Shown: piece after piece, positions 46,923 through 62,338 of the stretch
How positions within the stretch are numbered: the stretch's first letter is position 1
How the letters are laid out: each line of letters opens with the position of its first letter
NCBI RefSeq assembly: GCF_006539165.1
Contig: NZ_BJMM01000006.1
Location: 124,001-188,000 of the forward strand
Reading direction: 5' to 3'
Origin: Streptomyces cacaoi
GTDB taxonomy: Bacteria > Actinomycetota > Actinomycetes > Streptomycetales > Streptomycetaceae
DNA length: 64,000 nt
Notes under the pieces: generated by a model
What the model saw: the letters and a program-made list of their open reading frames with translations, nothing else
Told to the model about the DNA's origin: nothing
Database searches by the model: none
Made by a program: the position numbers and the translations under genes

Positions 46923-47059
46923 ACCACGAGGGGAGCGGGGGCCGTTGGGGAAGGTCCGGGGTCGCGCTCGCCACCTGCGTGCGGGAGGGCCCGTTGCGCT
47001 CGCCCGTGTGCGCGGAGGTCGTACGGAGAAGGCGGACCGGCGCGTTGGGAAGGCGAACC

Positions 47060-47075
47060 GGCCCGCCCCCGGGCC
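47060..47075 (-). terminator. Short GC hairpin after AAA+ gene
   Basis: GGCCCG (47060-47065) pairs with CGGGCC (47070-47075) around CCCC. It lies 14 bp after the minus-strand stop at 47089. The stem is short, so it may be only a pausing site. Confidence 0.35.
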
Positions 47076-47088
47076 CCTTTCGTGTTGC

Positions 47089-50000
47089 TCAGCGTTCGCC
47101 CGGTGCCGTGAAGTCCACGGCACGCAGCTCGCACAGTTCCTCGACGGTGGGGGAGGAGTGCTGGTTGAGGCGGCCGGCCTGGCGGGTGACCAGGGACTCG
47201 AAGACCTTGCGCGCGTAGCGGGCGTTGCCGAACGTGCGGTCCCTGGGGACACCGGTGAAGTGGCCGCGCAGCAGCTCGGTCAGCTCGTCCGTGCAGGCGT
47301 AGCCGGCCGCGGCGGCCTGGCCGTGCAGGATCGTCACCAACTCGTCCCCGGAGTAGGGGGCGAACCGCACCTCCTGCGAGAAGCGGGACGCCAGCCCGGG
47401 GTTGGAGGCGAGGAAACCGGCCATCTCCTCGCTGTAGCCGGCGACGATGACGACGACCTCGTCCCGGTGGTCCTCCATCAGCTTCACCAGGGTGTCCACC
47501 GCCTCCTGGCCGAAGTCCGCGTCGGCACGGGAACCGCCCGGGGTCAGCGCGTACGCCTCGTCGATGAACAGCACACCGCCCAGGGCCCGTTGGAAAGCCT
47601 CCGTGGTCATCCGGGCGGTGTGCCCCACATAGCGGCCCACCAGGTCGGCGCGCGAGACCTCGACCACCTGGCCGGTGCGCAGCACCCCGAGCGCCTTCAA
47701 CAGCCGTCCGTAGAGCCGGGCCACGGTCGTCTTGCCGGTACCGGGCGGGCCCGCGAAGACCAGGTGGTGGCTCAGCGCCGGTGCCGGCAGCCCCGCCGCC
47801 GACCGGCGGCGCGCGTTGGCCAGCAGCTGCACCAGATCGGAGACCGTGCCCTTGGCCTCGGCCAGTCCGGTCAGCGACTCCAGCTCGGCCAGCAGGCCGG
47901 GCAGTTCCGGGTCGTCCTCGGCGTCGGCCGCCGACCTCGGCTGCGCCTGTTCGCCCAGGTCCTCGGGCAGCAGCCGCAGCAGGGCCGAGGGCGCCGCGTC
48001 CTGCTCGGCGGCGAGCCGGTAGGCCTGCCGGTCCACCATCTCCTCGAACACGGCACGGGCGGCGCGCGCGTTGCCGAAGGTCTCGTCCCGGTTCATCCGC
48101 GCGAAGTGGGCGGCCAGGGCCTCGTGCGTACGCGGGTCGAGGACGTACTGGTGGCTCGCGCAGATCTTCTCCACGATCGTCACCAGCTCCTCCGCGGTGT
48201 AGTGGGGGAACTCCACCGTGCGGTTGAAGCGGGACGCCAGCCCGGGGTTGGACGCGAGGAAGGTACGCATCTCCGGCGCGTAGCCGGCGGCGATGACGAC
48301 GGCGTCGTCCCGGTGGTCCTCCATCAGCTTGACGAGGGTGTCCACCGCCTCCTGGCCGAAGTCCGGCCCGCCCGAGCCGGACTGCGCCGTCAGTGTGTAC
48401 GCCTCGTCGATGAACAGCACCCCGCCCAGCGCCTTCTCGAACACCTCGGTCGTCTTCAGCGCCGTCCCGCCGACGACCTGCGCCACCAGGTCCTGCCGGG
48501 CCACCTCCACCAGGTGCCCGTACCGCAGCACCTCCAGCTCGGCGAGGATGCTGCCGTAGAGCCGGGCCACGGTCGTCTTGCCCGTGCCGGGCGGACCGGC
48601 GAACACCAGATGCCGGCTCATCGACGGCACGGGCATGCCCATCTCGGCGCGGCGGCGGCCCATCCGCACCAGGCTCGCCAGCGTCGTCACCTCCCGCTTG
48701 ACGGACTCCAGCCCCACCAGCCCGGCCAGCTCGTCCAGGGCGCCGCCACCCGCTGCCCGGGACTCCTGACCGGCCTCCGCGGGCCGGGGCTCGTCGACGG
48801 GTGCCGGGGACGGGGAGAGATCGCCGTCCCCGGCACCGTCGGCGGCCGACCGCGGGCCGGACGCGTCAGCCGCCGGCGCCGACTGCCCGGCCACCGCGGC
48901 CAGTTCCGGATCGCCGTGCACGTCCTCGCTGCCGTTGTCCCGGCTGACGACCTGCTCCAGCACGGCCTCCTCGCCCAGCACCGTGCGGCGCACCCCGCAG
49001 CGGCCGTTGTCCCACGCGGACAGCGCACGCAGCAGGAGCGGCTCCCGCGTGTGCGAGACGAGCCCGTCACCGCGGTTGCCGAACAGCTCGCAGCCGGTGA
49101 GCACCGCCCGGGCCGCCGCGGCGATCAGCACACCGTTGCGCTCCCCGTCGTGGAACCGGCAGCTCTCCGCGTGCACTTCGACGCCGGCGCCCAGACCGAG
49201 GCCGTCCCCGCGGGCGCCCGCCACATCGCAGTCACGCAGTTGCACCACCGCCGAGCCGCCCACCGCGAACCCCGCGGCGCCGCTGTCCCGCACCGCGACA
49301 GCCGACAGCTCGGGACGGGCCCCGCCCTCCACCTGGACGCCGCTGCGGCGCACCGAGCTGATCTCCACGTCCTCGTAACGGCCGTGCGCCGCACCGCAGA
49401 TGAGCAGACCGTGCCCCTCGCCGTCGCCGAGCACGGACCGCCGCAGCACCGGGCGGGCATCGTCCGCCACCAGCACGGCCGGACCCGTCGCGCGGAGCAC
49501 CGTCAGCCGGTCGAACCGGGCGGCGCAGTCCTCCTCCAGGCGCACACCGCCGCCGCCGTCCACCCGCAGATCCGAGACGACCGGTGCGGCGCTCCCGCCG
49601 ATGTGCAGCGCCGCACCCCGCGCACCGGACACCTCGCAGCCCTCCAGCCGTCCGCGCACCGACTCGGTGACGCGGACGCCGTCACCGCCGGGCGCACGCA
49701 CCGTCACCGCGCGCACCAGCGGGGCCGCGTGGCCCGACAGCGTCATGCCGTGCCCGCCGGTCTCCTCCACCGTGCACTCCTCGACACCCGCCCCGCCGCG
49801 GCTGGAGATGTGCACCCCGACGCCCTCGGTCCGCCGGATACGGCAGCGCAGCAGCCGCGTCGCGCTCTGGTCCTCCAGCGCGACGGCGGGCTGCGCCGTG
49901 CCGGAGAAGTCGCAGTCCTCCACCGTGCCGCGCCCGTGCCCGCTGACGAACAGCGCGTTGCCGCGCGCGTCCCGCACCGTGCACCGCCGGATCAGCGGAT

Positions 50001-50508
50001 CCGCGTGCTCGCCGATCACCAGACCCGAGGCGTGCAGATCCGTCAGCTCGCAGTCCTCGATGGTGCTCTCCGCCTCGCTGGTCACCACGATCCCCGCCCC
50101 GCCCGGACCGGTGACCCGGCAGCCGCGCACCGCCAGCGCACCCCGCTCCCTGGCCAGCACCGTCGTCCACGCCGCACCGCTCAACTCGCAGTCGTCCAGC
50201 TCCAGTTGGCCGACCGCCACATCGACCGCCGGCACCTGCGGATCCTGGCCGCGGATCTCCAGCCCGGTCAGCTTGACCGCCTCGGCACACACCGTGACCG
50301 CGACTCCCGTGCGCGGCGCGAGCTGCACACTGCCGCGGCCCTGCTCAGCGAGCACCGTCACCACGTCGGTGCACACCAGCGCCTCCGGGTAGCGCCCCGG
50401 CGCCACCCGCACCAGCGCACCGGTGGACGCCGCCGCCAGCGCCTCGGTGATCGTCCTGAACGCCGCCCCCGAACCCTCCGGGCCCACGGCCAGGACCTGC
50501 CGACTCAT
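47089..50508 (-). CDS. Right-handed beta-helix protein fused to two EccA/CbbX-type AAA+ ATPase domains
   Basis: A 1,139-residue protein. Residues about 1-535 are a right-handed parallel beta-helix (many short turns such as IEDCELTDLHASGLVIG, LRRSVLGDGEGHGLLICG, VEECTVEETGGHGMTLSG). A Pro/Ala/Asp linker follows (about 540-600). Two AAA+ domains follow, each with Walker A GPPGTGKTTVARLYG (near residues 638 and 917) and Walker B GGVLFIDEAY. Both have the CbbX/EccA layout, including FGNARAARAVFEEMVDRQ-type regions. EccA-type ATPases assist type VII (ESX) secretion by remodelling substrate complexes. Its neighbours (golvesin-like protein, giant WXG-associated protein, WXG100, YbaB) support an ESX-linked role. 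Start ATG 50508. Confidence 0.85.
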   Translation of the reverse strand: MSRQVLAVGPEGSGAAFRTITEALAAASTGALVRVAPGRYPEALVCTDVVTVLAEQGRGSVQLAPRTGVAVTVCAEAVKLTGLEIRGQDPQVPAVDVAVGQLELDDCELSGAAWTTVLARERGALAVRGCRVTGPGGAGIVVTSEAESTIEDCELTDLHASGLVIGEHADPLIRRCTVRDARGNALFVSGHGRGTVEDCDFSGTAQPAVALEDQSATRLLRCRIRRTEGVGVHISSRGGAGVEECTVEETGGHGMTLSGHAAPLVRAVTVRAPGGDGVRVTESVRGRLEGCEVSGARGAALHIGGSAAPVVSDLRVDGGGGVRLEEDCAARFDRLTVLRATGPAVLVADDARPVLRRSVLGDGEGHGLLICGAAHGRYEDVEISSVRRSGVQVEGGARPELSAVAVRDSGAAGFAVGGSAVVQLRDCDVAGARGDGLGLGAGVEVHAESCRFHDGERNGVLIAAAARAVLTGCELFGNRGDGLVSHTREPLLLRALSAWDNGRCGVRRTVLGEEAVLEQVVSRDNGSEDVHGDPELAAVAGQSAPAADASGPRSAADGAGDGDLSPSPAPVDEPRPAEAGQESRAAGGGALDELAGLVGLESVKREVTTLASLVRMGRRRAEMGMPVPSMSRHLVFAGPPGTGKTTVARLYGSILAELEVLRYGHLVEVARQDLVAQVVGGTALKTTEVFEKALGGVLFIDEAYTLTAQSGSGGPDFGQEAVDTLVKLMEDHRDDAVVIAAGYAPEMRTFLASNPGLASRFNRTVEFPHYTAEELVTIVEKICASHQYVLDPRTHEALAAHFARMNRDETFGNARAARAVFEEMVDRQAYRLAAEQDAAPSALLRLLPEDLGEQAQPRSAADAEDDPELPGLLAELESLTGLAEAKGTVSDLVQLLANARRRSAAGLPAPALSHHLVFAGPPGTGKTTVARLYGRLLKALGVLRTGQVVEVSRADLVGRYVGHTARMTTEAFQRALGGVLFIDEAYALTPGGSRADADFGQEAVDTLVKLMEDHRDEVVVIVAGYSEEMAGFLASNPGLASRFSQEVRFAPYSGDELVTILHGQAAAAGYACTDELTELLRGHFTGVPRDRTFGNARYARKVFESLVTRQAGRLNQHSSPTVEELCELRAVDFTAPGER

Positions 50509-50580
50509 CGCCGTTCGCTCCTTCGCTCCATGCCCCGCCGCACCGGGTGGTGCCGGGGCCGATCGTGCTGCGGACACCGC

Positions 50581-50606
50581 GGCGGGACGGGCACCGTGTG
50601 CCGCCC
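50581..50606 (-). terminator. Imperfect hairpin between golvesin-like and AAA+ genes
   Basis: GCGGGACGGGCAC (50581-50593) pairs imperfectly with GTGCCGCCCGC (50596-50606). It lies in the 115-bp gap between two minus-strand genes and could be a weak terminator or attenuator. Confidence 0.35.
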
Positions 50607-50623
50607 GCTCCCGGCGCCGGAAG

Positions 50624-52684
50624 TCATGCCGTGCGGCACTGCGCCTTCACCTGGGCCGCCGCGATATGCGCGTAGGTCTTGCCGCCGGAATTCCAGTCCT
50701 TGCCCGCGTTCGTCAGCCGCACCGTGAACCGGCCGCCGGACACGCGCACGGTCGTGCCCGTCACCCAGCTCCCCTGGTGCGACGGCTGATCGACGTGGAA
50801 GCCGGCCAGATCGTTGCCGTACCACTTGGTGCCGCCGTGCACCGAGTAGTGCGCCGGTGAACCCCCGACGACCAGCGGGCTGTCGCCCTTCGGCACATAC
50901 ACCGACACCCGGCACGAAGCCGACTTCATGCCCGGCGCGAACGTCCAGTACGCCGTCAGATCCGAATCCGGACTGCTGTCCCCGGACATCGGCAGGGCCC
51001 GCACGTCGCCCGAGCAACCCCCGGACGACGAACCGCCCTTGCGGGTCAGCCAGCCTTCCTTGCCGTCGCCGTACGCCCCGATCTCCTGATAGCCGCCGCA
51101 CCCGGGACCGGCCACCTCCGTGTACTCCCAGCCCGAACTCTTCACCTGGGCCCGGGCACCGGAGCCGCCCTCGCCGTCCGACGCCTTGTCGTCGGAGCCG
51201 CCGCTCTCCTTGTCGCCGTCCGCGCCGCCCGAGCCGTCCTTCGCGCCGCCGTCGTCCTCGTCCCCGCGGTGGCCCGCCGTGTGCTCGCCGCCGTCCTTGC
51301 CGCCCTTTCCGTCCTCGCCCTTGCCGTCCCCGTCGTGCCCGTGCCGCTGGCCGGGGGACGCGCCCGGCACCGGGACCGCCCCGTGACCGCGGCCGTCCGC
51401 GTCGTCCGGCAGCGGCTGCGCGTCCTGCCTTTGACCGTCCGTCCCGCCCAGGTGCCCGGTGAGGGCGGCGACGCCGAACGGGGAGGCCAGCAGCACCACT
51501 CCCGCCAGAGCCGCGCCGGCGACCGCGCCCGGCGAGAGCCGTCCGGCCCGCCGCTCCCGTGCGCCGTCCTCGGCACGGGCCGTGCCGCCCGCGCCGGTGG
51601 CGGCGGCCGCGGCGGCGGTCGTGGCCGGTGCCGCACCGGACCGGGTCCGCTCGCTGCCGCCGGTCAGCCGCCGCAGTGCGCCACGGCGTCCACGGGCGGG
51701 CGTCGGCGTACCGGGGGAGCGGTCGGTGTCGGAGCTGCCGGAGCTGCCGGAGCTGCCCGAGGTGTCCGAGGTGTCCGCGCCGGTGCCGCCGGACGTGGCG
51801 GACGTCCGGCCGGACTCCCCGCCCGCACCGCCCGCCTGCCCGCCGGTTCCGTCCGCCTGTCCGTCCTGCCCGTCTGCTCCGGCCGCCTGCCTGCCGGTTC
51901 CGCCCGTCCGGTCGCCCGCCCCGGCCGCCTGCTCGTCCGCCCCGGCCGCTGCGGTGCCGCCCGGACCCTCGGATGCTGCTGCCTGCCGAGGCGTGACGCT
52001 GCCGTCCCGGCCTGCCGTCACGGACTCGCCGTCGGCAGCTCCTTCCGCTGTGAAGCCCGGGCGCAGGACGGTGCCGCGCGAGGCGGCGAGACCGGAGACA
52101 CCCGAACCGGCGCCTTCGCTCCCGCCGACCTCCGCCCCGTCGTCGGCCTCTGCACCGCGAGCACTCTCCGTGCTGCCGCGGGTTGTTGTGCCGCTGTCGG
52201 CTCCGGCGCCGCTACCGGGCTGCGCCTTGGCGTCCGCCTCCGCACCGTGGCGGTGCCCCGCGCCGTCGCCGGGCCCCGCGTTGCTGTCCGGTTCCGCGGC
52301 GACGTCTGCTTCTTCCGGGCGGCCGGCGGCACCTGCGCCGGCGTCGGCTCTCGCGTCACCGTCGGCCCGCGCGCTGCCGCCGGTCCGTGCGCTCCCGTCG
52401 GGCTCCGTGTCTGCGTCGGCTCTTGTCTCCTCGGGGGACGACGTGACTGCCGCGGTACGGGCGCCCCGGGCGGAGCCACCGGACGCAGCGGACGTGCCGG
52501 GCGCGCCCGATGCTTCGGGTATCGCAGTCGTCCCGGTGCTCCCGGTGCTCCCGGTGCTCCCGGTCTCCTCGGGCAGGGCGGTGCTGTCCTCGGCACGGCG
52601 CGGGTCAGCGGTGGAGCCGGAGTCCTCCCGCGGGCTGGCCGAAGCCGTGTGCGCCGGGACGTTCTTCTCCGTGGGGTCGGTCAT
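50624..52684 (-). CDS. Single-pass membrane protein with disordered leader and golvesin-like surface domain
   Basis: A 686-residue protein. The first about 400 residues are highly repetitive, Gly/Ala/Ser/Thr/Asp/Glu-rich (many TGS, SGS and SGSSGSS steps) and likely disordered in the cytoplasm. One transmembrane helix follows, LSPGAVAGAALAGVVLLASP through FGVAALTG. Next is an extracytoplasmic acidic, Gly/Asp/Lys-rich stalk, then a C-terminal domain. That domain begins SSGWEYTEVAGPGCGGYQEI and contains AYWTFAPG and SCRVSVYVPKGDSP, which resembles the golvesin/Xly carbohydrate-binding-like fold. It ends QVKAQCRTA. It sits between the giant protein and the beta-helix/AAA+ gene. It may anchor or present material at the cell surface. 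Start ATG 52684; function is inferred. Confidence 0.7.
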   Translation of the reverse strand: MTDPTEKNVPAHTASASPREDSGSTADPRRAEDSTALPEETGSTGSTGSTGTTAIPEASGAPGTSAASGGSARGARTAAVTSSPEETRADADTEPDGSARTGGSARADGDARADAGAGAAGRPEEADVAAEPDSNAGPGDGAGHRHGAEADAKAQPGSGAGADSGTTTRGSTESARGAEADDGAEVGGSEGAGSGVSGLAASRGTVLRPGFTAEGAADGESVTAGRDGSVTPRQAAASEGPGGTAAAGADEQAAGAGDRTGGTGRQAAGADGQDGQADGTGGQAGGAGGESGRTSATSGGTGADTSDTSGSSGSSGSSDTDRSPGTPTPARGRRGALRRLTGGSERTRSGAAPATTAAAAAATGAGGTARAEDGARERRAGRLSPGAVAGAALAGVVLLASPFGVAALTGHLGGTDGQRQDAQPLPDDADGRGHGAVPVPGASPGQRHGHDGDGKGEDGKGGKDGGEHTAGHRGDEDDGGAKDGSGGADGDKESGGSDDKASDGEGGSGARAQVKSSGWEYTEVAGPGCGGYQEIGAYGDGKEGWLTRKGGSSSGGCSGDVRALPMSGDSSPDSDLTAYWTFAPGMKSASCRVSVYVPKGDSPLVVGGSPAHYSVHGGTKWYGNDLAGFHVDQPSHQGSWVTGTTVRVSGGRFTVRLTNAGKDWNSGGKTYAHIAAAQVKAQCRTA

Positions 52685-52751: not shown

Positions 52752-55700
52752 CTACGGCTGCTGCTCCGGTTCCGGCCCGTCGTCCGGAGTGGCGTTCCGG
52801 GCGGTCGGGTTGAGCGCCGCCATCCAACGGCTGCTGCCGGCCGAGGAACCCGACGCCGGGCCCGCTCCGTTCCCGGCGACACCCCGGTCGGCGGGTGCTG
52901 CCGTGGCCGGCGCATTCCCCGGAGGCCCGGCGGCGGGAGGTCCGCCGGACCCCGAGAGCGCGTCCGGAACGGGGTCGTCGGCCTCCGGCGCTCCGGACGG
53001 CGGCCGACCGGGGTGGGGCCGCGGCGGCTCGTCCCCCTCCAGCGGCCGGTCCTGCTGTTCCTCGTTCTGCTGCTCCGCGTCGTGCTGCTCCGCGTCGTGC
53101 TGTCCTGCGTCCCGCTGCTCGGCGTCCGGCCGGCCCTCCGGTGGACCGGCCCCCGGTCCGTCCTCCTGACCGTTGTGCGGCGCATCGGCGCGGCCGGGCC
53201 GGTTCTCACCTGGCGGAGTCGGCGGCTCCGGGTGAGGGTCCAGTGCGGTCGCGACGTGCGGCGGCGTCGGGGTGCGGAGCAGCAGCGGGTCCCCGGGACG
53301 GTCGTCGTCCGCCGTTTCCCAGACGAGGTCCTGTTCCGGCGGCGCCTGCTGTGGGTCCCAGCCCGGCAGCACGAACCGCTCCAGGAACTCCTGCCGGGTG
53401 AGCGGTCCGGGCTCTCCGCGTACCTGTACGGAGCCCCCGCCTCCGCTGGTCAGATGCCACAGCTCGAAGCCTGCGACCCGCTCGCGACGCTGTGCTTCCC
53501 GCAACCGCTCCGCTTCCGGGCCCTCCTGGCCGTCGGCATCGTCCGCACGCCCCACGGGGACGTACCAGCCCGACTCGACGCGCAACGCCTCCGCCTCCAG
53601 ACCACCCACCCCGCTCAGCAACGCCTCGGGGGAGAAGCGCAGTTGGAGGGCGGACGGCAAGTCGACGGTGCGCTCGAACCTCGTCTCCATGCGGCGCGTC
53701 CGGCCGCTGCCGCTCCAGCCGGTCAACCGGATGTCGACGGACAGGTCCACCGGGGAGTAGCGCAGCCAGTACGAGGTGACGTCCTGGGAGTCGCCGCGTA
53801 TGGCGCTCCAGCCTCCCGCGTCGGCCTCGGCGGCCTGTGCGGACGTCGAGCCAGCTGCCACGGCGGGGGAGTGTGTCGCCCCGTCCACGGACTTGAAGCC
53901 CAGCTTGCCGCTGATGGTGAGGCTGCGGCTGTCACCCAGCGAGCTGGTGTTGTTCCGGTAGGCGTAGTGGGCGCTCTCCGCGCTCTTCTTCTGCCAGCCG
54001 GCCCCCTCCTCCGGGCGCTGCGCCCGGAAGCGGATCTCCAGCCGTCCGTGTGTGTGGCTCAGAAGCCCGCCCTCGGTGGCGAGTTCGGGCCCGTAGGGCG
54101 TGAAGGGGCCGTCCCTGTCCGTCAGCCCGTTCTGCCGCAGCTGGTCGGCCAGCACCCGCGCGTCCAGGGCCCGGCGCAGTTCCTCGACGGTGTTCTCTCC
54201 CGGCCGGCCGAAGTCGCTCGGGGCCCCCGGGGCGCGCCGGAGCGCGTCGAGCACGCCGTCGAAGAGCAACCCGCCGGCTTCGTCGGAGATGTCCGCCAGC
54301 GCGTGCTGGTCCCGGAAGAGCCCGGCGGGCACCTCCCAGTCCCGTCGCTGCTGCTGTGCCTCCGCTTCCGCCGGTGCCTGCCCCCGTCCCTGTGGCTGCC
54401 CCTGTCCCTGTGGCTGTCGCTCTGCCTGCTGCTGTGCCTCGGTCTGCTGCTGTGCCTCGGCCTGTGCCCGCGCCCGCGCCTGTGGTTCCGCGTCTCCCCG
54501 GGCCTGCGGCTGCTGTTCCGGGACCCGCCCCGGCGGGGGGATCGTCAGCAGCTCCGAGCGGGGGACCAGGACCGTCTCCCACATCCTCAGCCGGCGGGCG
54601 CCGCCCCGCTCTTCGAGGAGCCGCAGCAGACGCCGGGGCACGTCCAGCAGCACGGAGTTGAGGATCTGCGAGGGGTGCGCGGTGGTCGCCAGTCGCAGTT
54701 CCAGAGTGGCCGGCAGACGGTATGGGTACAGGTCCTCTTCCTGCGTGGTCAGCGCGGAGTGCCGGCGCACGATGCGGCTGGCGTTGTCGGCGCTGCTGGT
54801 GGTGCGGGCTCTGCTGACGGACGGGGTGAACGTGGTGGGGGCGTCCCCGGGCGGGCCCATGACGGAGACGGAGAGATTCCGCGTCGTGGTGTCGCTGCTC
54901 GAACCCGTGGCTTCCCGGCGCTGATTGGCCTGCTCGTAGCGGGAGAAGGTGCCCTGTACCCGGTGCCCGGAGAACCGCGCCGGCTGAGGGGCGTCGTTCC
55001 CGGGCCATTCGCCCCGCAGCAGCCTGACCACCAGGTGCACATAGTGGTGGTGGCCGGGATGGTCGGTGCGCATCCGGATGGCCACGCCGGGGCCGCGCAG
55101 CGCCGAGTTCAGGATGCGCAGCACACGCATGTCCAGGGAGAGGTCGGCGCCGGACCGGGTCAGGGCGCCCGGCGCGGGGGTGCCGCGCGCAGGGGAGAGC
55201 AGCCCGGAGGCGTACCGCTCCAGCAGCCGGGTCACCTCCGCGAGAATCTCCCGGGTCTCGTAGCTGTCCCGTACCGTCTCCGGGGCGTCCCTCTGGCCCG
55301 GGTCCAGCTCCAGCGCCATCGGCATGGAGTGCAGGGGAAGCAGGGGGTGGGCCGCGCGGTGCGGCTGGTCGGGCAGCGCGGGCGGCGGCCCGTCGTGCCG
55401 GCGGTGTGCCGGGTCCGCTGCGGTGAGCTGCGGGGGAACGGAGACGAGCGCGGGGGCGACCTCGGGCAGGTCGTCCGGGCGCAGCATCGTGAGGCTGCCG
55501 GGCAGCTCGAAGGAGACACCCCGGCCGGTCGGGGACCAGTTCCTCAGGACGTTCCCGCGCACGGTCACGGCGTTGATCTGCCAGGTGACGTCCGCCGTGG
55601 TCAGTGTGTGCGCCAGGTCGAACTGGACGAACGCGCCCGGGTGGGTGTCCAGCATCTCGACGAGGCCCGAGGAGCGGCCGTGTGCGCGCGTTCCTCCGAA

Positions 55701-58700
55701 GCTGAGCGCACCTCCCGCCGTGTCGCCTTCCCCACTGCCCCCGACGGACGCGCCGGCCGAGCCGGAGTGGGTGGTGCTGACGGTGCCGGTGCGCCGGGTC
55801 AGATACTCGTCCAGGGTGAAGTGCGCACGCTGAAGGCGGGGGGCCTGCCCGCCGCCCGGGGCGGCGGGCCGCGCACGGTGCGGCATCGCCTGCACGACGA
55901 GGTGCACCCGCCGGTCGGTCAGCGTCCCGGAGACCACATGCCGCAGAACGGTGGTGTGCGAGTCCCGGTTGAACAGGGCGAACAACTGTCCGTCGCTCAG
56001 GGCCGTTTCGACGAAGGGCGCGGCGTCCGACCTCTCGACCCCCAGCTCGTGCAGCAGTCGCAGAGCCTCGTCGCGCACGGCGTCGGTGTGGTGCAGGCCC
56101 ATCACCCGGTCGTTGGCGGACAGTTGCATCTGCTGCCCGACGGCGGGGGAGTGGAGAGGGAAACGCAGCGTGCCGTTGGCCAACGGCACCGGCTCCACCC
56201 GCCGCGTCCCTCCGGCCGGCCGTGGCAGCGGTTCGGGCAGGGGCGGGGAGTCCGCCGGAACCAGATAGCTGACCCGGCCCGGCACGGGCTCGGGCTCGAA
56301 CGGCCGCCGATTGTCGTCGACGACGGACACCGACAGGTGGAACCGGGCGGCGTAGGTCTCGTGCCACAGCGGGCCGCTGTAGCTCAGTCCGGAGTGGGTG
56401 AAGCCGTAGCTGGTCAGGGTCTGGTTCCGGGAACCGGAGCGGGTGTAGCCGAACGTGGCCTCCGGCACCGTGACGGTCACGCCGCCGGCGTCCTGGCTGA
56501 CGGTGGGGCCCAGAGTGATGCCCTGCGCACTGCTGTGCCGGGTGTCCGACTGCGACCAGGCCCAGTGCGTCGGCCACCACTGCAACGAGCCGGCTTCGAC
56601 GCGATGCCGGCTCAGCGGGATGATCGCGCCCCCTTCCGCCAGGGGCAGACGCTCGCCCCGGAGCCGGAACCGCAGCGTGATCTGCTTTTCGCCCGCGCCG
56701 CGTCCGCTCCGGTAGCTGTACGAGAGGCCCTGGGGAGAGAACAGCTCCTCCGTCTGGTGCAGCAGCTCCTCGGCGTGGAACCGGGCGTCCAGGAACTCCC
56801 GGAGATCGCGCTGCGCCCATGTGCCCATGCCGAGCAGGCCGCGCCTGTCGAGAAGGCGTGCCCCCCGGTCGAGGAAGGTACCGACGACATCACGCACCCC
56901 GGACAGGCCCGCCGGCGCGAGCAGGAAGCTGCCGCCGGTCGGCCGGGTCAGTATCCCGGCGGGCTCCTGCGGGTCCGGTTGCTGAGGGGCCTCATGGGCG
57001 GGCTGTTCCCGGCCGAGCTGCTGCTCGGGTGCCAACTGCTGGAGTTCATGGGCTTCTTCGCCCGGCCCCGCGGTGGGATCGTCCTGCTCGTCGAGCCGGT
57101 GCGCGGCGGGCTCGTCGTCCTGCTGACGCCGGGGCTGCCGCTGTCGGCCCGGCTGGGCCTGCTGCTGCTCCGGGGCTTGTGGGTCCTGTCCTGCCTGATG
57201 GGGCTCTTCGACGGCGTTCTGCTGCGCGGCGCGAGCCGGATCGGCCTCGTTCAGCCGTGCCTCGAAGTCCTCCACCAGTTCCTCGGGGACGCGGACGACG
57301 ACATCCACCCGCTGCTCGACGCTTCTGCTGGGGTCCCCTTCTCTGTGCAGGGCGACGGAGACTTCCGTGGACAGCAGGTAGGGCACCGATCGACCGGAGA
57401 AGCCGGAGGTGCGGGAGAAGCCACCCGTGTATCCGACGGTGTTCTTGTGGCTGACGCTGTCGGACAGGGTCAGCGTCACCGGCAGCGAGAAGACCTCGTG
57501 CGGGGTGACCGTGCCGCCCAGCGAGAGCTGCCGCCCGCCCCCTCCGCCGGTGACATGGTTCGCGCTCGCCCAGGAACGGGTGTTGAGGCTGAGCGTCACC
57601 GGCTCGGCGTCCCCCAGCCGTCGCACCCTCTGCACGGTCGCGCGGGCCTCGCTCACGTACCGTTCACCGCCGTTCCGCAGCACGGGAAGCAGCAGCCCCG
57701 TCCGGTCGCTGCCCAGCATGCGCCGGAAGGTGGCGAGGAACCCCTCTTCGCTCAGCCGGTCGTCCACGAATCCGCGGGCCTCGGTGCCCGGCGCCAGCAG
57801 CAGGCTGTTCCGGTCGATCAGCTGCCGGCGCAACCGCCCCTGCCCGTGGCTCTGCTGCACGAGGGCGAAGTGGTGCAGGAGCGCGTCGGCGAATCCGTTC
57901 TGCGCCGCGTGCTGCCCCTGCGCGTCCCATGTTTCCCACTGCTCGTTCCGCTGTGGCGCACCGTCGGCGGGTCCTGCGGGCCCGGTCGGCTCGGTGGGGA
58001 AGGTCGTGGTGAGTTCGGTGGGCAGGACCGTGGTGAGCGAGGTGCGGACTTCCCCTACCCCTCTGCCGTTCTCGGTCCGGATCGTCAGTTGGACGTCGTC
58101 GGTGCGGAGCCAGGTGGTCCGTCCGCTCACCCCCAGCTCCGGGCGGGCGTAGGTGTTGAGCAGATGCGTCTGTCCGGCGGTGGCCGTGGAGGTGCCGGTC
58201 ACCGTCGGCCCCGCACCGCCGCCGGGGGTCGCGCCGGTCCCGTGCGAGGTTCCCACGCTGAACGTCCGGGTGTTCGTCATGATGTCGCCGCCGCCGTGCA
58301 TCCGGTTGGTCACCGGCTCCCGCTCGCCCTTGACCACCGCCCCGTGCCGCTGCGGCACCTCGGCGGTGATGTCGTGCGTGCGGGCGCGGGACACGTCGCC
58401 GACTCCGAGGAGGAGATCGAGCCGGCCGAGCTGAGGGTCGTCGACCTGGAGAGAGAGCCCGCCGTCCAGCATGTCCCGGTGGTGCGCGTCGGCCAGCCGG
58501 CGCTGGATCGCCAACGCCAGCCGGGCGACGAGGTCCGGGTCCGGTGGCTGCTGTTCGGCGTCGCGCTCGTCGCGCTGCCCGTTCCGCCGTGCGGCCGCGT
58601 CCCGTCGGCTCCTCAGATACGACTCGGTGAGCTGCCGCAGGGTCTCGGTCGCCCTCCCGGCCTGTGCCGCGCCGCTACCGGGGCCCAGATGCAGGTCACC

Positions 58701-61532
58701 CAGGCGTTCGATCCGGCCGTACTGACCGAGGGCATACCCGTCTGCCGGTTGCGGTTGCTGCTGACCCGGCTGCTGTGGAACGTGGGCGCCGTCCCGGGCT
58801 TCCTGCTCGGGCGCGCCGGGCTGTGCGTCCTGCTGGGGCGGGACGTCGAGGGAGGCTCGCCGGGACGCGTCGTCGGTGCCCCGTGCGGCGTCGGACTCCG
58901 CGTCGCCGGTCTCCTCGCCGTCGGACTGTTCGCGCTCGGACTCCTCCTGCTCGCGGTCGGAGTCCTCGTCGTCGGTGGCCGGGCGGTCGTCCTCGGATGC
59001 GTCCCGGTCGTCTCCGGCCGGTGGACGGCGGCCACCACCGTCACCGCCCCGGTCTCCACCGTCGCCGTTGCCGCTGCCGTCGTCGCGGCGGTCCCCGCCG
59101 GAACCTCCTGTGCTGTCAGCCGAGTTGGCGGATCCCTCCGGATCCGGTTCCGGCTCGCGTCCGGGGGAGGAATCCGAGGGAGCCCGGCTCCCCGACGGCT
59201 GCTGTCCGGCTCCTCCCCGGCTCCCGCCACCGGTGTCGTTCCCGGCGTCCCGGGGAACGGCCGAGTCCCGCTGGGTGCCCGTCTCCGCGGGTCCGTCCGT
59301 CGCTGTCGGTATCGGCTCCGGGCCCGGTCCGCTCGTCTGCCGTTCATTCAACTGCGGTGTGCCGGGCCCGGGTTGGGGGTGATGCGCGTCCGTGCTCTCC
59401 GGGGCGGACCGGCCCTGCTCAGCGGAGGGAACCGGGCCCGGAGAGGCGGTGCCGGGCCGAGCGGTCTCGGGTGCGGGGTCCGCTCCGGAGGTGTCGGTGG
59501 ACGCGAGCGGAGTGACGGGCTGTGTGGGCGGCTGCGGCACCGGCTGAGCCGTGGTCTGCGGAGCCTGCGCGGTCGGTGACGGCTGCGAAGTCGTCTGCGA
59601 GGGCTGTGTGTTGGGCTGCGGTTCGGGCTCGGTGGAGGGCTGTGTCCCGGTCCGTGCCGGGGAGGATTCGGCAGCTCGCCCCGGGCCGGGCCCGGTGGAG
59701 CGTGACGACGGGCTGCCGGACGCCGCGGCCGTCTGCCCCGCCACGGCCGTAGCGGCAGTCGTCGCGGAAGCACCCGTCGCGGAGGTCGCCGCGTCCGGTG
59801 CCGAGTCCGTGTGCGGAACGGGCGACGACGGTGAGGAGGGCGCGAGTTGGGCGTCCTGCGCGGTGGCGGGCGCGTCCGGTTCGGCCGGAGCGGTGTCGTC
59901 GCCCGGCTCCGGCTCCAACGCCGGTTCCGGTTGCGGGGAGCCTCCGGTGCCGGGCTGCTGCGCAGTGTGCGGGACCGTCCGGTTGTCCACGGAGGCCCCC
60001 TGCATGTGGCCCTGCCCGGAGCCGTTCTGCGGACCGGTGGCCACGGTGGCCGGCGGTGTCCCGGCGGAACCGCCGACCGGGGAGTCCGAGAACGGAGCGG
60101 GGGACGACGCAAGGGAGGCCCCGGGCGTACCGGTCTCCGGTGACGAGGACGCGGTGTCCGGGGCGTCACCCGCGGGGGAGGGGCCCGCGGAGGAGGAGTC
60201 CGCGGTGAGGGAGGAGACCAGGCGGGTGCCGGCGGCGCCGAGTTGCTCGGTCGCGTGCCCGGCGACGGCGTTGGCGGGGCCGCTCCACGGCGAGACCTCG
60301 AAGGTGTGCTGGTCGGAGAAGAGCAGGTTGTACAGGCCCTCGCTCAGATAGCCCTGCCCGGTGTAGGCGGCCGTGGTGCCGAGGAACTGGGCACCACGTT
60401 CCACGATCTTGTCGTGGGTGCCGAGCAGCCCCTGGTGCAGGGTCCCGGGAAGCTGTTCCAGCGTCTCCCGCAGCGGCTGCGGCAGTCGGCTGCCGGCCGG
60501 CCCCTCCAGCACCTCGCGGACGGCGGCGCGGGCCGCTTCCTGCCCGCCGTCGGTGCCCCAGTGCCGGGCGAGCGCGCTGCCGTAGTCGCGGCCGAGGGCG
60601 CGGGCGGGCCCGGTGCCCAGCAGGGGAGGCAGCGCGTCGGCGAACACCGACCCGAAGGCGTCGCTGAGTCGGTGTGCGGCCTCGTCGCCGAGCCCCTGCC
60701 CGGCCTCCCGGCCGCCGAGCGGGCGCAGCAGATCGCCGGAGTGCTCGCGGACGAGGTCGCGCACCCCGCTGCTGAGGCCCGCCGTCACCCCCTCGGGCAG
60801 GGCAGCGGCGGCGGCCTGGCCTGCCACGTCCTTGGCGACGGCGTCGCCCGCGCTGTTGCCGAAGTGCCTCAGCAGCTTGTCGGTTCCGGCATGTGCGAGC
60901 AGCCCGGTGGGGCCCGCGATCAGACCGTCAACGAGACCGCCGAGCGCGGCCTGCTTGGTCGACTCCTTGTCCCACTCGTCGCGCGTGCCCTGGTCGATCT
61001 GGATGCGCTGGATGAGCGCGTCCATGGACAGCGCGACGCCCTCGCTGATGACGACGGAGGCCAGGACGTGCTGCACCAGCCCGTTGAGCAGCCGTTGCAG
61101 GAACAGGGAGGTGTTGAGCTGGATCTCGGGGATCAGCGGGTAGCGGAACGTCGCGATGGCCAGGGCGATCTCCGCGAACATCTCGGCGAGTTGGGCGATC
61201 GCCATGTACTTGGCGTACTCGACGTTCGTCGCGGTCGTCAGCGCCAGCCGCTCCAGGCCGCGCGCCGCCTCCGCCCCGGCCTCCAGATAGTTGCCGGGCC
61301 CGGTGAACTCCGCGAGCGACGCCTCGAACCGGTCCGCCGCGCGCATGCTGAACCGCTCGCGCACGGCCCGGGTGACGTGGGCCGCGAGGTCCGGCATCTC
61401 CTCCAGGCGCCGGCGCATGTCGGCGTAGACCCGGCCGAGAGCGCGCAGCCCGTCCTCGTCGCCCGACGGGAACGGCGACCCGGTCAGCACGGCGAAGGCG
61501 GTACGGCCCTCCTCGGAGATCTGGAGCGACAC
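52752..61532 (-). CDS. Giant WXG-associated polymorphic-type protein
   Basis: A 2,926-residue protein. Residues about 1-430 are mainly helical (MSLQISEEGRTAFAVLTGSP; LERLALTTATNVEYAKYMAI) and resemble the N-terminal domain of CpnT-like ESX substrates. About 430-930 are low-complexity Pro/Ser/Thr/Glu/Asp-rich. From about 934 to 2,720 come at least five beta-rich modules with related wording (e.g. VQLTIRTENGRGVGEVRTSL; LEIRFRAQRPEEGAGWQKKS), separated by Gln/Ala/Pro/Glu linkers near 1,440-1,530 and 2,334-2,400. The tail (2,720-2,926) is acidic and Pro-rich and ends near SSRWMAALNPTARNATPDD. No recognisable toxin domain is present. Start GTG 61532 lies two bases beyond the WXG100 stop, with GGAGG upstream, so translation is coupled. 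Confidence 0.8.
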   Translation of the reverse strand: MSLQISEEGRTAFAVLTGSPFPSGDEDGLRALGRVYADMRRRLEEMPDLAAHVTRAVRERFSMRAADRFEASLAEFTGPGNYLEAGAEAARGLERLALTTATNVEYAKYMAIAQLAEMFAEIALAIATFRYPLIPEIQLNTSLFLQRLLNGLVQHVLASVVISEGVALSMDALIQRIQIDQGTRDEWDKESTKQAALGGLVDGLIAGPTGLLAHAGTDKLLRHFGNSAGDAVAKDVAGQAAAAALPEGVTAGLSSGVRDLVREHSGDLLRPLGGREAGQGLGDEAAHRLSDAFGSVFADALPPLLGTGPARALGRDYGSALARHWGTDGGQEAARAAVREVLEGPAGSRLPQPLRETLEQLPGTLHQGLLGTHDKIVERGAQFLGTTAAYTGQGYLSEGLYNLLFSDQHTFEVSPWSGPANAVAGHATEQLGAAGTRLVSSLTADSSSAGPSPAGDAPDTASSSPETGTPGASLASSPAPFSDSPVGGSAGTPPATVATGPQNGSGQGHMQGASVDNRTVPHTAQQPGTGGSPQPEPALEPEPGDDTAPAEPDAPATAQDAQLAPSSPSSPVPHTDSAPDAATSATGASATTAATAVAGQTAAASGSPSSRSTGPGPGRAAESSPARTGTQPSTEPEPQPNTQPSQTTSQPSPTAQAPQTTAQPVPQPPTQPVTPLASTDTSGADPAPETARPGTASPGPVPSAEQGRSAPESTDAHHPQPGPGTPQLNERQTSGPGPEPIPTATDGPAETGTQRDSAVPRDAGNDTGGGSRGGAGQQPSGSRAPSDSSPGREPEPDPEGSANSADSTGGSGGDRRDDGSGNGDGGDRGGDGGGRRPPAGDDRDASEDDRPATDDEDSDREQEESEREQSDGEETGDAESDAARGTDDASRRASLDVPPQQDAQPGAPEQEARDGAHVPQQPGQQQPQPADGYALGQYGRIERLGDLHLGPGSGAAQAGRATETLRQLTESYLRSRRDAAARRNGQRDERDAEQQPPDPDLVARLALAIQRRLADAHHRDMLDGGLSLQVDDPQLGRLDLLLGVGDVSRARTHDITAEVPQRHGAVVKGEREPVTNRMHGGGDIMTNTRTFSVGTSHGTGATPGGGAGPTVTGTSTATAGQTHLLNTYARPELGVSGRTTWLRTDDVQLTIRTENGRGVGEVRTSLTTVLPTELTTTFPTEPTGPAGPADGAPQRNEQWETWDAQGQHAAQNGFADALLHHFALVQQSHGQGRLRRQLIDRNSLLLAPGTEARGFVDDRLSEEGFLATFRRMLGSDRTGLLLPVLRNGGERYVSEARATVQRVRRLGDAEPVTLSLNTRSWASANHVTGGGGGRQLSLGGTVTPHEVFSLPVTLTLSDSVSHKNTVGYTGGFSRTSGFSGRSVPYLLSTEVSVALHREGDPSRSVEQRVDVVVRVPEELVEDFEARLNEADPARAAQQNAVEEPHQAGQDPQAPEQQQAQPGRQRQPRRQQDDEPAAHRLDEQDDPTAGPGEEAHELQQLAPEQQLGREQPAHEAPQQPDPQEPAGILTRPTGGSFLLAPAGLSGVRDVVGTFLDRGARLLDRRGLLGMGTWAQRDLREFLDARFHAEELLHQTEELFSPQGLSYSYRSGRGAGEKQITLRFRLRGERLPLAEGGAIIPLSRHRVEAGSLQWWPTHWAWSQSDTRHSSAQGITLGPTVSQDAGGVTVTVPEATFGYTRSGSRNQTLTSYGFTHSGLSYSGPLWHETYAARFHLSVSVVDDNRRPFEPEPVPGRVSYLVPADSPPLPEPLPRPAGGTRRVEPVPLANGTLRFPLHSPAVGQQMQLSANDRVMGLHHTDAVRDEALRLLHELGVERSDAAPFVETALSDGQLFALFNRDSHTTVLRHVVSGTLTDRRVHLVVQAMPHRARPAAPGGGQAPRLQRAHFTLDEYLTRRTGTVSTTHSGSAGASVGGSGEGDTAGGALSFGGTRAHGRSSGLVEMLDTHPGAFVQFDLAHTLTTADVTWQINAVTVRGNVLRNWSPTGRGVSFELPGSLTMLRPDDLPEVAPALVSVPPQLTAADPAHRRHDGPPPALPDQPHRAAHPLLPLHSMPMALELDPGQRDAPETVRDSYETREILAEVTRLLERYASGLLSPARGTPAPGALTRSGADLSLDMRVLRILNSALRGPGVAIRMRTDHPGHHHYVHLVVRLLRGEWPGNDAPQPARFSGHRVQGTFSRYEQANQRREATGSSSDTTTRNLSVSVMGPPGDAPTTFTPSVSRARTTSSADNASRIVRRHSALTTQEEDLYPYRLPATLELRLATTAHPSQILNSVLLDVPRRLLRLLEERGGARRLRMWETVLVPRSELLTIPPPGRVPEQQPQARGDAEPQARARAQAEAQQQTEAQQQAERQPQGQGQPQGRGQAPAEAEAQQQRRDWEVPAGLFRDQHALADISDEAGGLLFDGVLDALRRAPGAPSDFGRPGENTVEELRRALDARVLADQLRQNGLTDRDGPFTPYGPELATEGGLLSHTHGRLEIRFRAQRPEEGAGWQKKSAESAHYAYRNNTSSLGDSRSLTISGKLGFKSVDGATHSPAVAAGSTSAQAAEADAGGWSAIRGDSQDVTSYWLRYSPVDLSVDIRLTGWSGSGRTRRMETRFERTVDLPSALQLRFSPEALLSGVGGLEAEALRVESGWYVPVGRADDADGQEGPEAERLREAQRRERVAGFELWHLTSGGGGSVQVRGEPGPLTRQEFLERFVLPGWDPQQAPPEQDLVWETADDDRPGDPLLLRTPTPPHVATALDPHPEPPTPPGENRPGRADAPHNGQEDGPGAGPPEGRPDAEQRDAGQHDAEQHDAEQQNEEQQDRPLEGDEPPRPHPGRPPSGAPEADDPVPDALSGSGGPPAAGPPGNAPATAAPADRGVAGNGAGPASGSSAGSSRWMAALNPTARNATPDDGPEPEQQP
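53068..53116. repeat. 15-base in-frame repeat in the giant gene
   Basis: The unit TGCTGCTCCGCGTCG is repeated with small changes across 53068-53116 and continues loosely on both sides. On the coding strand it encodes repeats such as DAEQHDAEQ. It should be prone to slippage that changes the tail length without breaking the frame. Confidence 0.75.
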
Positions 61533-61534
61533 GG

Positions 61535-61864
61535 TCAGCGGCCTCCGTGCAGCCGCCGGGTGGCGGCGGCGTTGTCCTGCTCGGTCCTGGCCAGGACATC
61601 GGCGGTGGTGAGGATGGTGTCCGTGGACTGCTGGAAGGCGGTCCGGAGATTCTCCAGCAGGCCGTGGAAGCGCTCCTGCGCCGGGTGGTAGATCTCCGCG
61701 AACGCCCGGGCCATGTCGTCGCCCTGCCCCCAGGGCGTGCCTAGCGCGTCGGTGGCGGAGCTGTGGTGTGCGACGAGACGGGCGGCGCTGTCGGCCAGTT
61801 CGCGGTACTTGGCGCCGTTGCGGGACATGCCGTCGGTGTCGGCCGCCATGTAGTCCGAAGCCAC
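61535..61864 (-). CDS. WXG100-family protein
   Basis: A 109-residue helical-hairpin protein. The first helix starts after MASDYMAADTDGMSRNGAKY; the turn carries TPWGQGDDMARAF, a WXG-type motif; the second helix runs through FHGLLENLRTAFQQSTDTIL. This size and layout are typical of WXG100 substrates or partners of type VII secretion. Start GTG 61864 is six bases behind AAGGAG. The next gene, the giant protein, starts two bases after its stop. It is likely a helper or co-substrate exported together with the giant protein. A C-terminal YxxxD/E-type export motif is not obvious. Confidence 0.87.
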   Translation of the reverse strand: MASDYMAADTDGMSRNGAKYRELADSAARLVAHHSSATDALGTPWGQGDDMARAFAEIYHPAQERFHGLLENLRTAFQQSTDTILTTADVLARTEQDNAAATRRLHGGR

Positions 61865-61924: not shown

Positions 61925-62338
61925 TCAGTCGGCCGTCGCGTCCTGCTGGCCGGGCAGACAGCCGCGGACGAAGGCGTCGAGCATCTCGTCGTGCCGGGAG
62001 TGGCCCTCGACCGCCGCGTCGAGGTCGATGCCGTCCGGCATGACGGGTGCCAGCGCCGACCGCATCTCCTCCGCGGCCTCTTCCTGGGCGCGGCCGATGG
62101 TCTCCAGCACGGCGGCGGAGAGTTCGGCGGCGGCCATCGAGCGGTACCGGGTGGTGTGGAACCGGACGTCCTGGACGATGCCGCGGGCGTCAACCGTGAC
62201 GCTGAGCAGCCGGTCCCTGGCCGTAGCCGTGGCGCTGATCCCGTCCAGGCTCTCGCGTGCCGCCCTGGCCTGCTCCCGCGCCTCCTGCAACCGCGCCAGG
62301 TCGGCCTCCATACGGGCCTGCAACGGGCTGCCTGTCAC
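61925..62338 (-). CDS. YbaB/EbfC-family protein (EspL-like)
   Basis: A 137-residue protein. The YbaB fold is recognisable as an N-terminal helix (MEADLARLQEAREQARAARES), a beta-strand region (DRLLSVTVDARGIVQDVRFH) and a long C-terminal helix (SAAVLETIGRAQEEAAEEMRSA). YbaB-like proteins recur in ESX loci (the mycobacterial EspL is one) where they are thought to help substrates or regulation. Start GTG 62338 follows AGGAGGG by six bases, the best ribosome-binding site in this block. It overlaps by 149 bases the upstream WXG-domain reading frame, which is unusual. Its stop is 60 bp before the WXG100 start. Confidence 0.83.
   Translation of the reverse strand: MTGSPLQARMEADLARLQEAREQARAARESLDGISATATARDRLLSVTVDARGIVQDVRFHTTRYRSMAAAELSAAVLETIGRAQEEAAEEMRSALAPVMPDGIDLDAAVEGHSRHDEMLDAFVRGCLPGQQDATAD

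What the first reader, a model, noticed from the sequence alone, without database searches (positions are those of the whole stretch)
47089..50508. Right-handed beta-helix fused to a double EccA/CbbX AAA+ ATPase
EccA proteins usually have a TPR-like N-terminal domain and one AAA+ domain. Here about 535 residues of beta-helix precede two complete AAA+ domains, each with intact Walker A and B. A beta-helix is a long ligand-binding surface, so the fusion might hold an extended substrate while the ATPases work. This pairing is not one I know as a described family.
Basis: partly seen in the sequence, partly recalled or inferred. Interest (0 to 1): 0.75.

Follow-up and report, generated by a model that had tools for sequence, protein, structure and literature searches.

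The report
Beta-helix double-ring ATPase of secretion system
The gene is real and encodes a long beta-helix joined to two ATP-driven motor domains; it is a common, little-studied part of one type of protein secretion machine in soil actinobacteria, sitting where other such machines carry the helper ATPase EccA.

Summary
ORF 47089-50508 (-), 1139 aa, is a right-handed parallel beta-helix (about residues 5-535; 23-residue turns), a disordered linker and two complete AAA+ domains. It is no one-off: one capped genome scan found 558 stretches encoding relatives, and the 80 best, kept for study, all have the same layout in one uninterrupted frame. D1 and D2 domains separate in a tree, so the tandem is old. 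The gene belongs to a complete type VII (ESX) locus (eccC, mycP, eccD, eccB, WXG100 genes, a 2926-aa WXG100-like protein). Of 80 relatives, 52 carry EccB or EccD within 10 kb and 13 more only a MycP-type protease. In nine same-genus genomes no EccE match lies at this locus. Among 37 same-genus genomes, the ten with the double-motor protein are exactly the ten with a second, distinct EccB. A membrane-anchored neighbour with a golvesin-like, ricin-B or bulb-lectin domain occurs in 46 of 80. D2 keeps the pore-loop aromatic (71 of 71), D1 mostly not (16 of 71). Best reading: an EccA-like, p97-shaped substrate chaperone of an EccE-less ESX. It fails strict EccA membership (no TPR; per-domain scores below cut-off). 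A beta-helix "in EccA" is already mentioned in print.

The parts
47089..50508 (-). whole gene: beta-helix + AAA+ (D1) + AAA+ (D2), 1139 aa
48904..50496 (-). right-handed parallel beta-helix, residues about 5-535, about 22 turns of 23 residues
   Evidence: Pfam Beta_helix; AlphaFold pLDDT 96.3; period 23; PDB fold matches
48748..48903 (-). disordered linker, residues 536-587
   Evidence: pLDDT below 50
47941..48741 (-). AAA+ domain D1, residues 590-856; active-site motifs intact; pore-loop position 678 is Val
47104..47907 (-). AAA+ domain D2, residues 868-1135; active-site motifs intact; pore-loop Tyr960
50624..52684 (-). neighbour: 686-aa protein, 385-residue Ala/Gly-rich tail, one membrane span (about residues 386-409), golvesin-like outer domain
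   Evidence: no Pfam match of its own at 0.01
52752..61532 (-). 2926-aa protein with N-terminal WXG100_2 domain, likely ESX substrate (inference)
   Evidence: PF25547, 8.6e-12; related loci share only parts of it
61535..61864 (-). WXG100-type protein, 109 aa
   Evidence: matches the model of neighbour cluster 14 (1.2e-16)
62190..64000 (-). 751-aa protein of no known family, runs off the window (G000:C6:186190-188445)
   Evidence: beyond it on the same contig: WXG100 genes, eccB, eccD (-), eccC, mycP (+)

Best explanation
This is the accessory cytosolic ATPase of an EccE-less ESX (type VIIa) system and takes the place that EccA has in mycobacterial ESX loci. Shown here: the architecture, its conservation, its place inside or beside ESX loci, and intact catalytic motifs in both motor domains. 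Inferred: it assembles as a hexamer with two stacked rings like Cdc48/p97; the beta-helices project from the D1 ring on a flexible linker and recruit a dedicated partner (most likely the giant WXG100-like protein or its WXG100 partner, or the tail of the membrane-anchored lectin-type protein); D2, which keeps the threading aromatic, is the main pulling ring, while D1 mainly binds nucleotide, holds the ring together and gates it. The outcome would be a substrate kept or made secretion-competent and handed to EccC, without proteolysis, as proposed for the SpoVK/CbbX/EccA clade.
For: ESX locus: the own contig has eccB, eccD, eccC, mycP and WXG100 genes next to it. Of 80 relatives, 52 carry EccB or EccD within the fetched flanks (45 of the 57 with near-full flanks), 41 all of EccB, EccC, EccD and MycP, and 13 only a MycP-type protease. 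Of the 14 with neither a core nor a WXG100 match, 10 have a giant ORF of 2014-3309 aa nearby and 4 have short contigs or flanks. In a sister lineage the gene lies between eccB and WXG100 genes on one strand (L122-L124). Co-occurrence: 10 of 10 same-genus genomes with the double-motor protein have an EccB above 310 bits, 0 of 27 without it do. No EccE match at the locus in 9 of 9 genomes. Clade: best solved relatives CbbX and EccA1; by fold CbbX, then tandem-ring Cdc48, Drg1, Rix7, p97. Pore loop: D2 aromatic 71 of 71, D1 16 of 71. D1 and D2 rows separate in the tree. Published view of the clade as dedicated non-proteolytic chaperones: PMC10659427 (passages).
Against: No binding, ATPase or secretion data. 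The giant proteins diverge so fast that a shared binding face is hard to picture, and the first 210 residues of the beta-helix are only moderately better conserved than the rest. A sister lineage has a degenerate D2 and must work with one motor; one of its members also lacks the D1 aromatic, so the division of labour is not general. EccA itself is of unknown function, and is absent from ESX-4, the type ascribed to non-mycobacterial actinobacteria (PMC11217815, passages). Neither domain alone reaches the EccA, SpoVK or CbbX cut-off. The Arg that CbbX and EccA1 carry four residues after the conserved Asn is never Arg here.
Confidence: 0.6

Rival explanations
1. It is an assembly or anchoring ATPase for the neighbouring single-pass lectin-type membrane protein rather than a substrate chaperone: the beta-helix binds the cytosolic tail or the ESX membrane complex and the motors place or remodel the surface receptor.
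For: 46 of 80 loci hold a protein with the same membrane anchor and a golvesin-like, ricin-B or bulb-lectin domain, 43 of them with one within 300 bp of the ATPase gene; 8 loci hold two. No anchor match at the ordinary ESX locus of the same genome in the 16 kb held (L119).
Against: Not found in 34 of 80 loci, 6 of them Pseudonocardiaceae with all four core genes, nor in L122-L124; the cytosolic tail is not conserved.
Confidence: 0.2
2. It activates a cytosolic cell-envelope enzyme, as SpoVK does with MurG, and its place in ESX loci reflects joint regulation only.
For: Clade precedent: SpoVK-MurG, and EccA1 with mycolic-acid synthesis (PMC10659427, passages).
Against: Among the most frequent neighbour families, the nine exemplars scanned were ESX core, WXG100 and anchored proteins, or had no family; no envelope enzyme. 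Rarer neighbour families were not scanned.
Confidence: 0.12
3. The beta-helix is a carbohydrate-active enzyme or carbohydrate-binding module joined to the motors.
For: Most of the 50 PDB fold matches listed are polysaccharide lyases, epimerases, esterases, glucanases or phage tail proteins.
Against: Weak matches only (best TM 0.55 to a phage tail protein; 8-16% identity), no sequence match in the PDB at E 0.1, no signal peptide by eye, and cytosolic-type motors attached.
Confidence: 0.04

Closest known systems
EccA (TIGR03922; solved EccA1 motor 9lur)
   Same: AAA+ of the same clade, encoded in an ESX locus with eccB and WXG100 genes, no protease domain
   Different: N-terminal beta-helix instead of TPR; two AAA+ domains instead of one; ESX without eccE; per-domain score below cut-off
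SpoVK (TIGR02881) and CbbX (TIGR02880, 3syk/3zuh)
   Same: both motor domains align over nearly the whole AAA+ module
   Different: those have one motor and other N-termini; dedicated to MurG or Rubisco (PMC10659427, passages); below cut-off per domain
Cdc48/p97, Drg1, Rix7
   Same: tandem AAA+ layout, N-terminal recruiting part, fold match over both domains
   Different: different AAA+ family (16-21% identity in the rows listed), different N-domain; likeness of layout, not membership
[quoted passage not shown]
   Same: same full-length family, 47.8-52.3% identity over 99-100% of the query in the 15 rows listed
   Different: the name gives no role and mentions neither the motors nor ESX

Membership tests
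EccA (TIGR03922) | TPR-like N-terminal region (model positions before about 270) | tested here: not met
   only model positions 271-531 and 273-549 match; residues about 5-535 are a beta-helix
EccA (TIGR03922) | score over 466.65 bits | tested here: not met
   483.5 bits only as the sum of two domains; alone 259.0 and 234.3
EccA (TIGR03922) | encoded in an ESX locus | tested here: met
EccA (TIGR03922) | needed for secretion of ESX substrates | not testable with these tools
   needs experiment
SpoVK (TIGR02881) | score over 422.95 bits | tested here: not met
   512.4 only as the sum of two domains; alone 260.1 and 261.1
CbbX (TIGR02880) | score over 459.25 bits | tested here: not met
   427.1 as a sum, 225.2 and 209.3 alone
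SpoVK-CbbX-EccA higher clade of classical AAA (PMC10659427) | GY signature at sensor 1 | tested here: met
   G742-Y743 and G1024-Y1025 invariant in 71 of 71
SpoVK-CbbX-EccA higher clade of classical AAA (PMC10659427) | Asn four residues before the first arginine finger | tested here: inconclusive
   N754/N1036 and R760/R1042 are invariant but six apart; the residue four after the Asn is Arg in CbbX and EccA1 but never Arg in the 71 sequences here; which Arg the paper means was not resolved
SpoVK-CbbX-EccA higher clade of classical AAA (PMC10659427) | second arginine finger (sensor 2) | tested here: met
   FGN-x-R with R815 and R1097 invariant in 71 of 71; that this is sensor 2 is my assignment
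ESX / T7SSa locus | EccB, EccC, EccD, MycP and WXG100 genes | tested here: met
   own contig
ESX / T7SSa locus | EccE (present in ESX systems except some ESX-4 variants, PMC11217815) | tested here: not met
   the only EccE match of the own genome is on contig 69, not contig 6 (150 of 173 candidate places scored)
right-handed parallel beta-helix | repeating coils with short parallel strands | tested here: met

The most novel reading that the evidence does not exclude
An ESX subtype of monoderm actinobacteria, without EccE and in some Streptomyces carried on linear plasmids, works with a double-ring beta-helix ATPase and a membrane-anchored surface lectin of exchangeable specificity: contact with a sugar on another cell or on the own wall is passed through the lectin to the ATPase, which unfolds and feeds giant, fast-evolving WXG100-like proteins to EccC. 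A targeted, lectin-aimed type VII secretion machine would be new.
Probability: 0.2. Interest if true: 0.8.

Novelty: new variant of a known kind. Interest (0 to 1): 0.5.

Why it matters
EccA is called a cytoplasmic AAA+ ATPase 'of unknown function' in a 2024 survey (PMC11217815, passages). This family poses the same question in harmless, genetically tractable Streptomyces, with a well-structured N-terminal domain, two motors with contrasting pore loops, and a likely partner set in one locus. The anchored lectins with swapped outer domains suggest what the machine may be aimed at.

Tried and rejected
Rejected: that the fusion is unique or chimeric (80 of 80 best relatives); that it is a true EccA or SpoVK because NCBIfam passes the cut-off (the pass is a sum of two domains); that the plus-strand 1260-aa ORF 46945-50727 is the gene (the minus-strand ORF has the coding-type composition and the homologues).

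Led nowhere: Pfam on the giant proteins of L014, L016 and L024 and on the 751-aa neighbour gave no family; no sequence relative of the beta-helix in the PDB; the order-wide survey failed. Whether the beta-helix has a conserved binding face could not be mapped, because model coordinates were not among the files that scripts could read.

A1 uses 71 of 81 sequences (10 of the 80 relatives left out by my choice as likely near-repeats: L019, L025, L050, L054, L063, L071, L076, L080, L082, L092); A3 uses 32; the tree uses 19 of 71 rows for each of D1 and D2 plus 13 other domains. Of 42 candidate neighbour proteins in A2, one (L031) proved to be a kinase and was dropped. The golvesin-like model was built from 21 rows that include the window protein, so its score there is circular; independent support is 47% identity to the L014 neighbour and Golvesin_C in 7 of 42 rows. 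Models of ESX core genes were built from clusters of these same loci. Pfam on one member each gave the specific families for EccB and EccD but only the general FtsK_SpoIIIE and Peptidase_S8 for EccC and MycP, and none for one WXG100-like cluster; so 13 loci with MycP alone (E 2e-61 or better) are weaker evidence. Only the giant ORF of L014 aligns with the window giant over a long stretch; the other giants are called giants by length. In some searches a part of the candidate places was scored (12 per genome; up to 150). Membrane spans rest on a hydropathy rule.
Full report
Observation. Its codon composition (0.78/0.53/0.93 GC at positions 1/2/3) is that of a real gene in this high-GC genome. 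Pfam reports Beta_helix, two AAA and two AAA_lid_6 stretches. AlphaFold2 with 71 sequences gives a beta-helix up to about residue 530 (block pLDDT 88-99), a disordered linker at 535-587, and two AAA+ domains. The beta-helix alone models at pLDDT 96.3 and pTM 0.91. It has a 23-residue period, hence about 22 coils. Foldseek's listed matches are mostly right-handed parallel beta-helix proteins, all weak (best TM 0.55, a phage tail protein). So the description is right.

Motor domains. The closest solved chains are CbbX (3syk, 3zuh) and EccA1 (9lur); by fold, CbbX first and then tandem-ring Cdc48, Drg1, Rix7 and p97. In 71 aligned sequences the Walker A lysine, Walker B Asp-Glu, sensor-1 Gly-Tyr, the Arg of SR[F/L] and the Arg of FGN-x-R are invariant in both domains. 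They differ in the pore loop: D2 has an aromatic in 71 of 71 (70 Tyr, 1 Phe), D1 has Val 30, Ile 25, Tyr 16 at the same place; CbbX and EccA1 have Tyr there. That D2 threads and D1 does not is inference. In a tree of 51 domains all 22 D1 rows form one set (100/99); the 19 intact D2 rows stand apart from D1 as one set (100/99 against D1 alone; 99/96 when the three long-branched degenerate D2 rows are counted in). The simplest reading is one tandem event before the family spread. The TPR-type EccA of G054 lies outside both; the tree program warns of long branches.

A sister lineage. In G023 (second copy), G043 and G046 the second domain scores only 62-72 bits against 413-423 for the first. It has Arg for the Walker A lysine, no Asp-Glu pair at Walker B and no SRF arginine (read from the sequences printed). 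In G043 and G046 the D1 pore loop has Tyr; in the G023 copy it has Ile. So the family also works with a dead D2, which weakens any general rule about the two motors.

Spread. Among 61 near genomes, 15 hold a match at E 1e-100 or better, 10 of them among the 37 same-genus genomes; at least G043 and G046 of these are of the dead-D2 kind. In plasmids, 29 records hold a place covering at least 80% of the query, and the 15 listed are all Streptomyces. [quoted passage not shown]

Neighbourhood. Past the right end of the window the own contig carries WXG100 genes, eccB and eccD on the same strand, then eccC and mycP on the other. With the giant WXG100_2 protein and a further WXG100 gene in the window this is a complete ESX locus apart from EccE. 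In relatives, 52 of 80 loci hold EccB or EccD in the fetched flanks (45 of 57 with near-full flanks), 41 hold all four core genes, and 65 hold at least one of the four, 13 of these MycP alone; 66 hold a core or WXG100 match. Of the 14 others, 10 have an ORF of 2014-3309 aa nearby and 4 have short contigs or flanks. In L122-L124 the gene stands between eccB and WXG100 genes, all on one strand, with room for another gene between.

An ESX subtype. EccB was sought in the same 61 genomes. The 10 same-genus genomes with the double-motor protein are exactly those with an EccB above 310 bits; all other same-genus EccB matches are at 277.3 bits or less. In 12 of the 15 genomes the ATPase and an EccB lie on one contig within 17 kb; in G032, G042 and G044 they are on different contigs. 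EccE was sought in ten genomes: in the nine same-genus ones with this ATPase no EccE match lies at the ATPase locus; in the own genome it is on contig 69 beside the ordinary EccB (up to 150 candidate places scored per genome), and that locus shows no such ATPase in the 16 kb held. This fits a report of a second ESX copy without eccE in some Streptomyces (PMC8401907, passages). Lack of EccE is also known for some ESX-4 systems, and ESX-4 is said to lack EccA (PMC11217815, passages), so the loci here may be ESX-4-like systems that have this ATPase instead; no tree of the core genes was made.

A lectin-type neighbour. The gene just upstream in the window encodes a 686-aa protein: a 385-residue Ala/Gly-rich tail, one membrane span with 4 Arg/Lys in the 15 residues before it and 1 in the 15 after (so an outer C-terminus is likely), and a golvesin-like domain. 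Of 80 relatives, 46 hold a protein with the same anchor and, in the nearest such gene, a golvesin-like (25), ricin-B (12) or bulb-lectin (9) domain; 43 have one within 300 bp, and 8 loci hold two. Pfam finds Ricin_B_lectin in 11, B_lectin in 9 and Golvesin_C in 7 of 42 candidates. It was not found in the other 34; in 3 of those the anchor alone matches and in 2 the outer domain alone at a contig end. So it is common but not essential.

Mechanism. Shown: architecture, conservation, locus, intact motifs. From published work: the SpoVK/CbbX/EccA clade acts as dedicated chaperones without proteases, with the N-terminal domain thought to recruit the target (PMC10659427, passages). Inferred: hexameric double ring; beta-helix as recruiter on a flexible arm; D2 as main puller; substrate handed to EccC. 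I put the ESX link at about 0.9, the EccA-like chaperone role at 0.6 and the D1/D2 split at 0.4. The mended counts (52 rather than 65 loci on specific markers) do not move these, because the same-genus co-occurrence and the plasmid annotations are independent of them.

Known or new. The beta-helix in EccA is named in one sentence of PMC10659427. In the main text of that paper the words tandem, two AAA, Streptomyces and lectin do not occur (figures not seen). It is the only paper held with EccA, AAA, beta-helix and type VII together; further searches, of which I saw listings and opened only the papers named here and PMC3482391 and PMC13118837 (passages; nothing on this family's role in ESX). 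Only open-licence PMC papers are held, and two key Streptomyces ESX papers were not read (one not held; the other seen only in a reference list). I therefore call it a new variant of a known kind, not a new kind.

Noticed in passing
L011:7913-10585 / L127:15913-18585 (G000 contig 3): A single-motor beta-helix AAA+ paralogue (about 890 aa) with no ESX match in the roughly 20 kb held. All 27 same-genus genomes without the double-motor protein have a motor match at 1e-80 or better of similar kind, so it may be a genus-core protein; their N-termini were not checked.
   Followed up: partly
L012:8929-14476 (G000 contig 88): A second single-motor paralogue between an EccD-like gene and WXG100 genes, with Tyr in the pore loop; the contig ends there.
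   Followed up: partly
L013:6057-8441 (G000 contig 15): An EccA-like protein with a weak match to the TPR side of the EccA model (31 bits) and one motor, with no ESX match in the 16 kb held and, by eye, histidine-synthesis genes nearby.
   Followed up: no
L122:7233-10790, L123:11471-16117, L124:10555-13896: Beta-helix double-motor proteins whose second motor has lost its catalytic residues, inside ESX operons.
   Followed up: partly
L128:1-12 (record 107121-122624): Beside a plasmid copy of this ESX lies a 15.5-kb gene named 'lonely Cys domain-containing protein' and an 'AAWKG family protein'; giant proteins seem to go with these loci.
   Followed up: no
window 52752-61532: The giant WXG100_2 protein shares only stretches with giants of related loci (30% with L014 over residues 919-2774, residues 11-481 with L085), as expected of fast-evolving secreted proteins.
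   Followed up: partly
L121:8488-11792 (G005): In G005 the beta-helix and the motors lie in two separate frames of 446 and 740 codons, either a split gene or a sequence error.
   Followed up: no
L017, L018, L019, L020, L025, L028 downstream of the ATPase gene: Pseudonocardiaceae loci carry an 800-900-aa protein downstream that, in the examples read by eye, begins like a helix-turn-helix regulator; no family scan was made.
   Followed up: no
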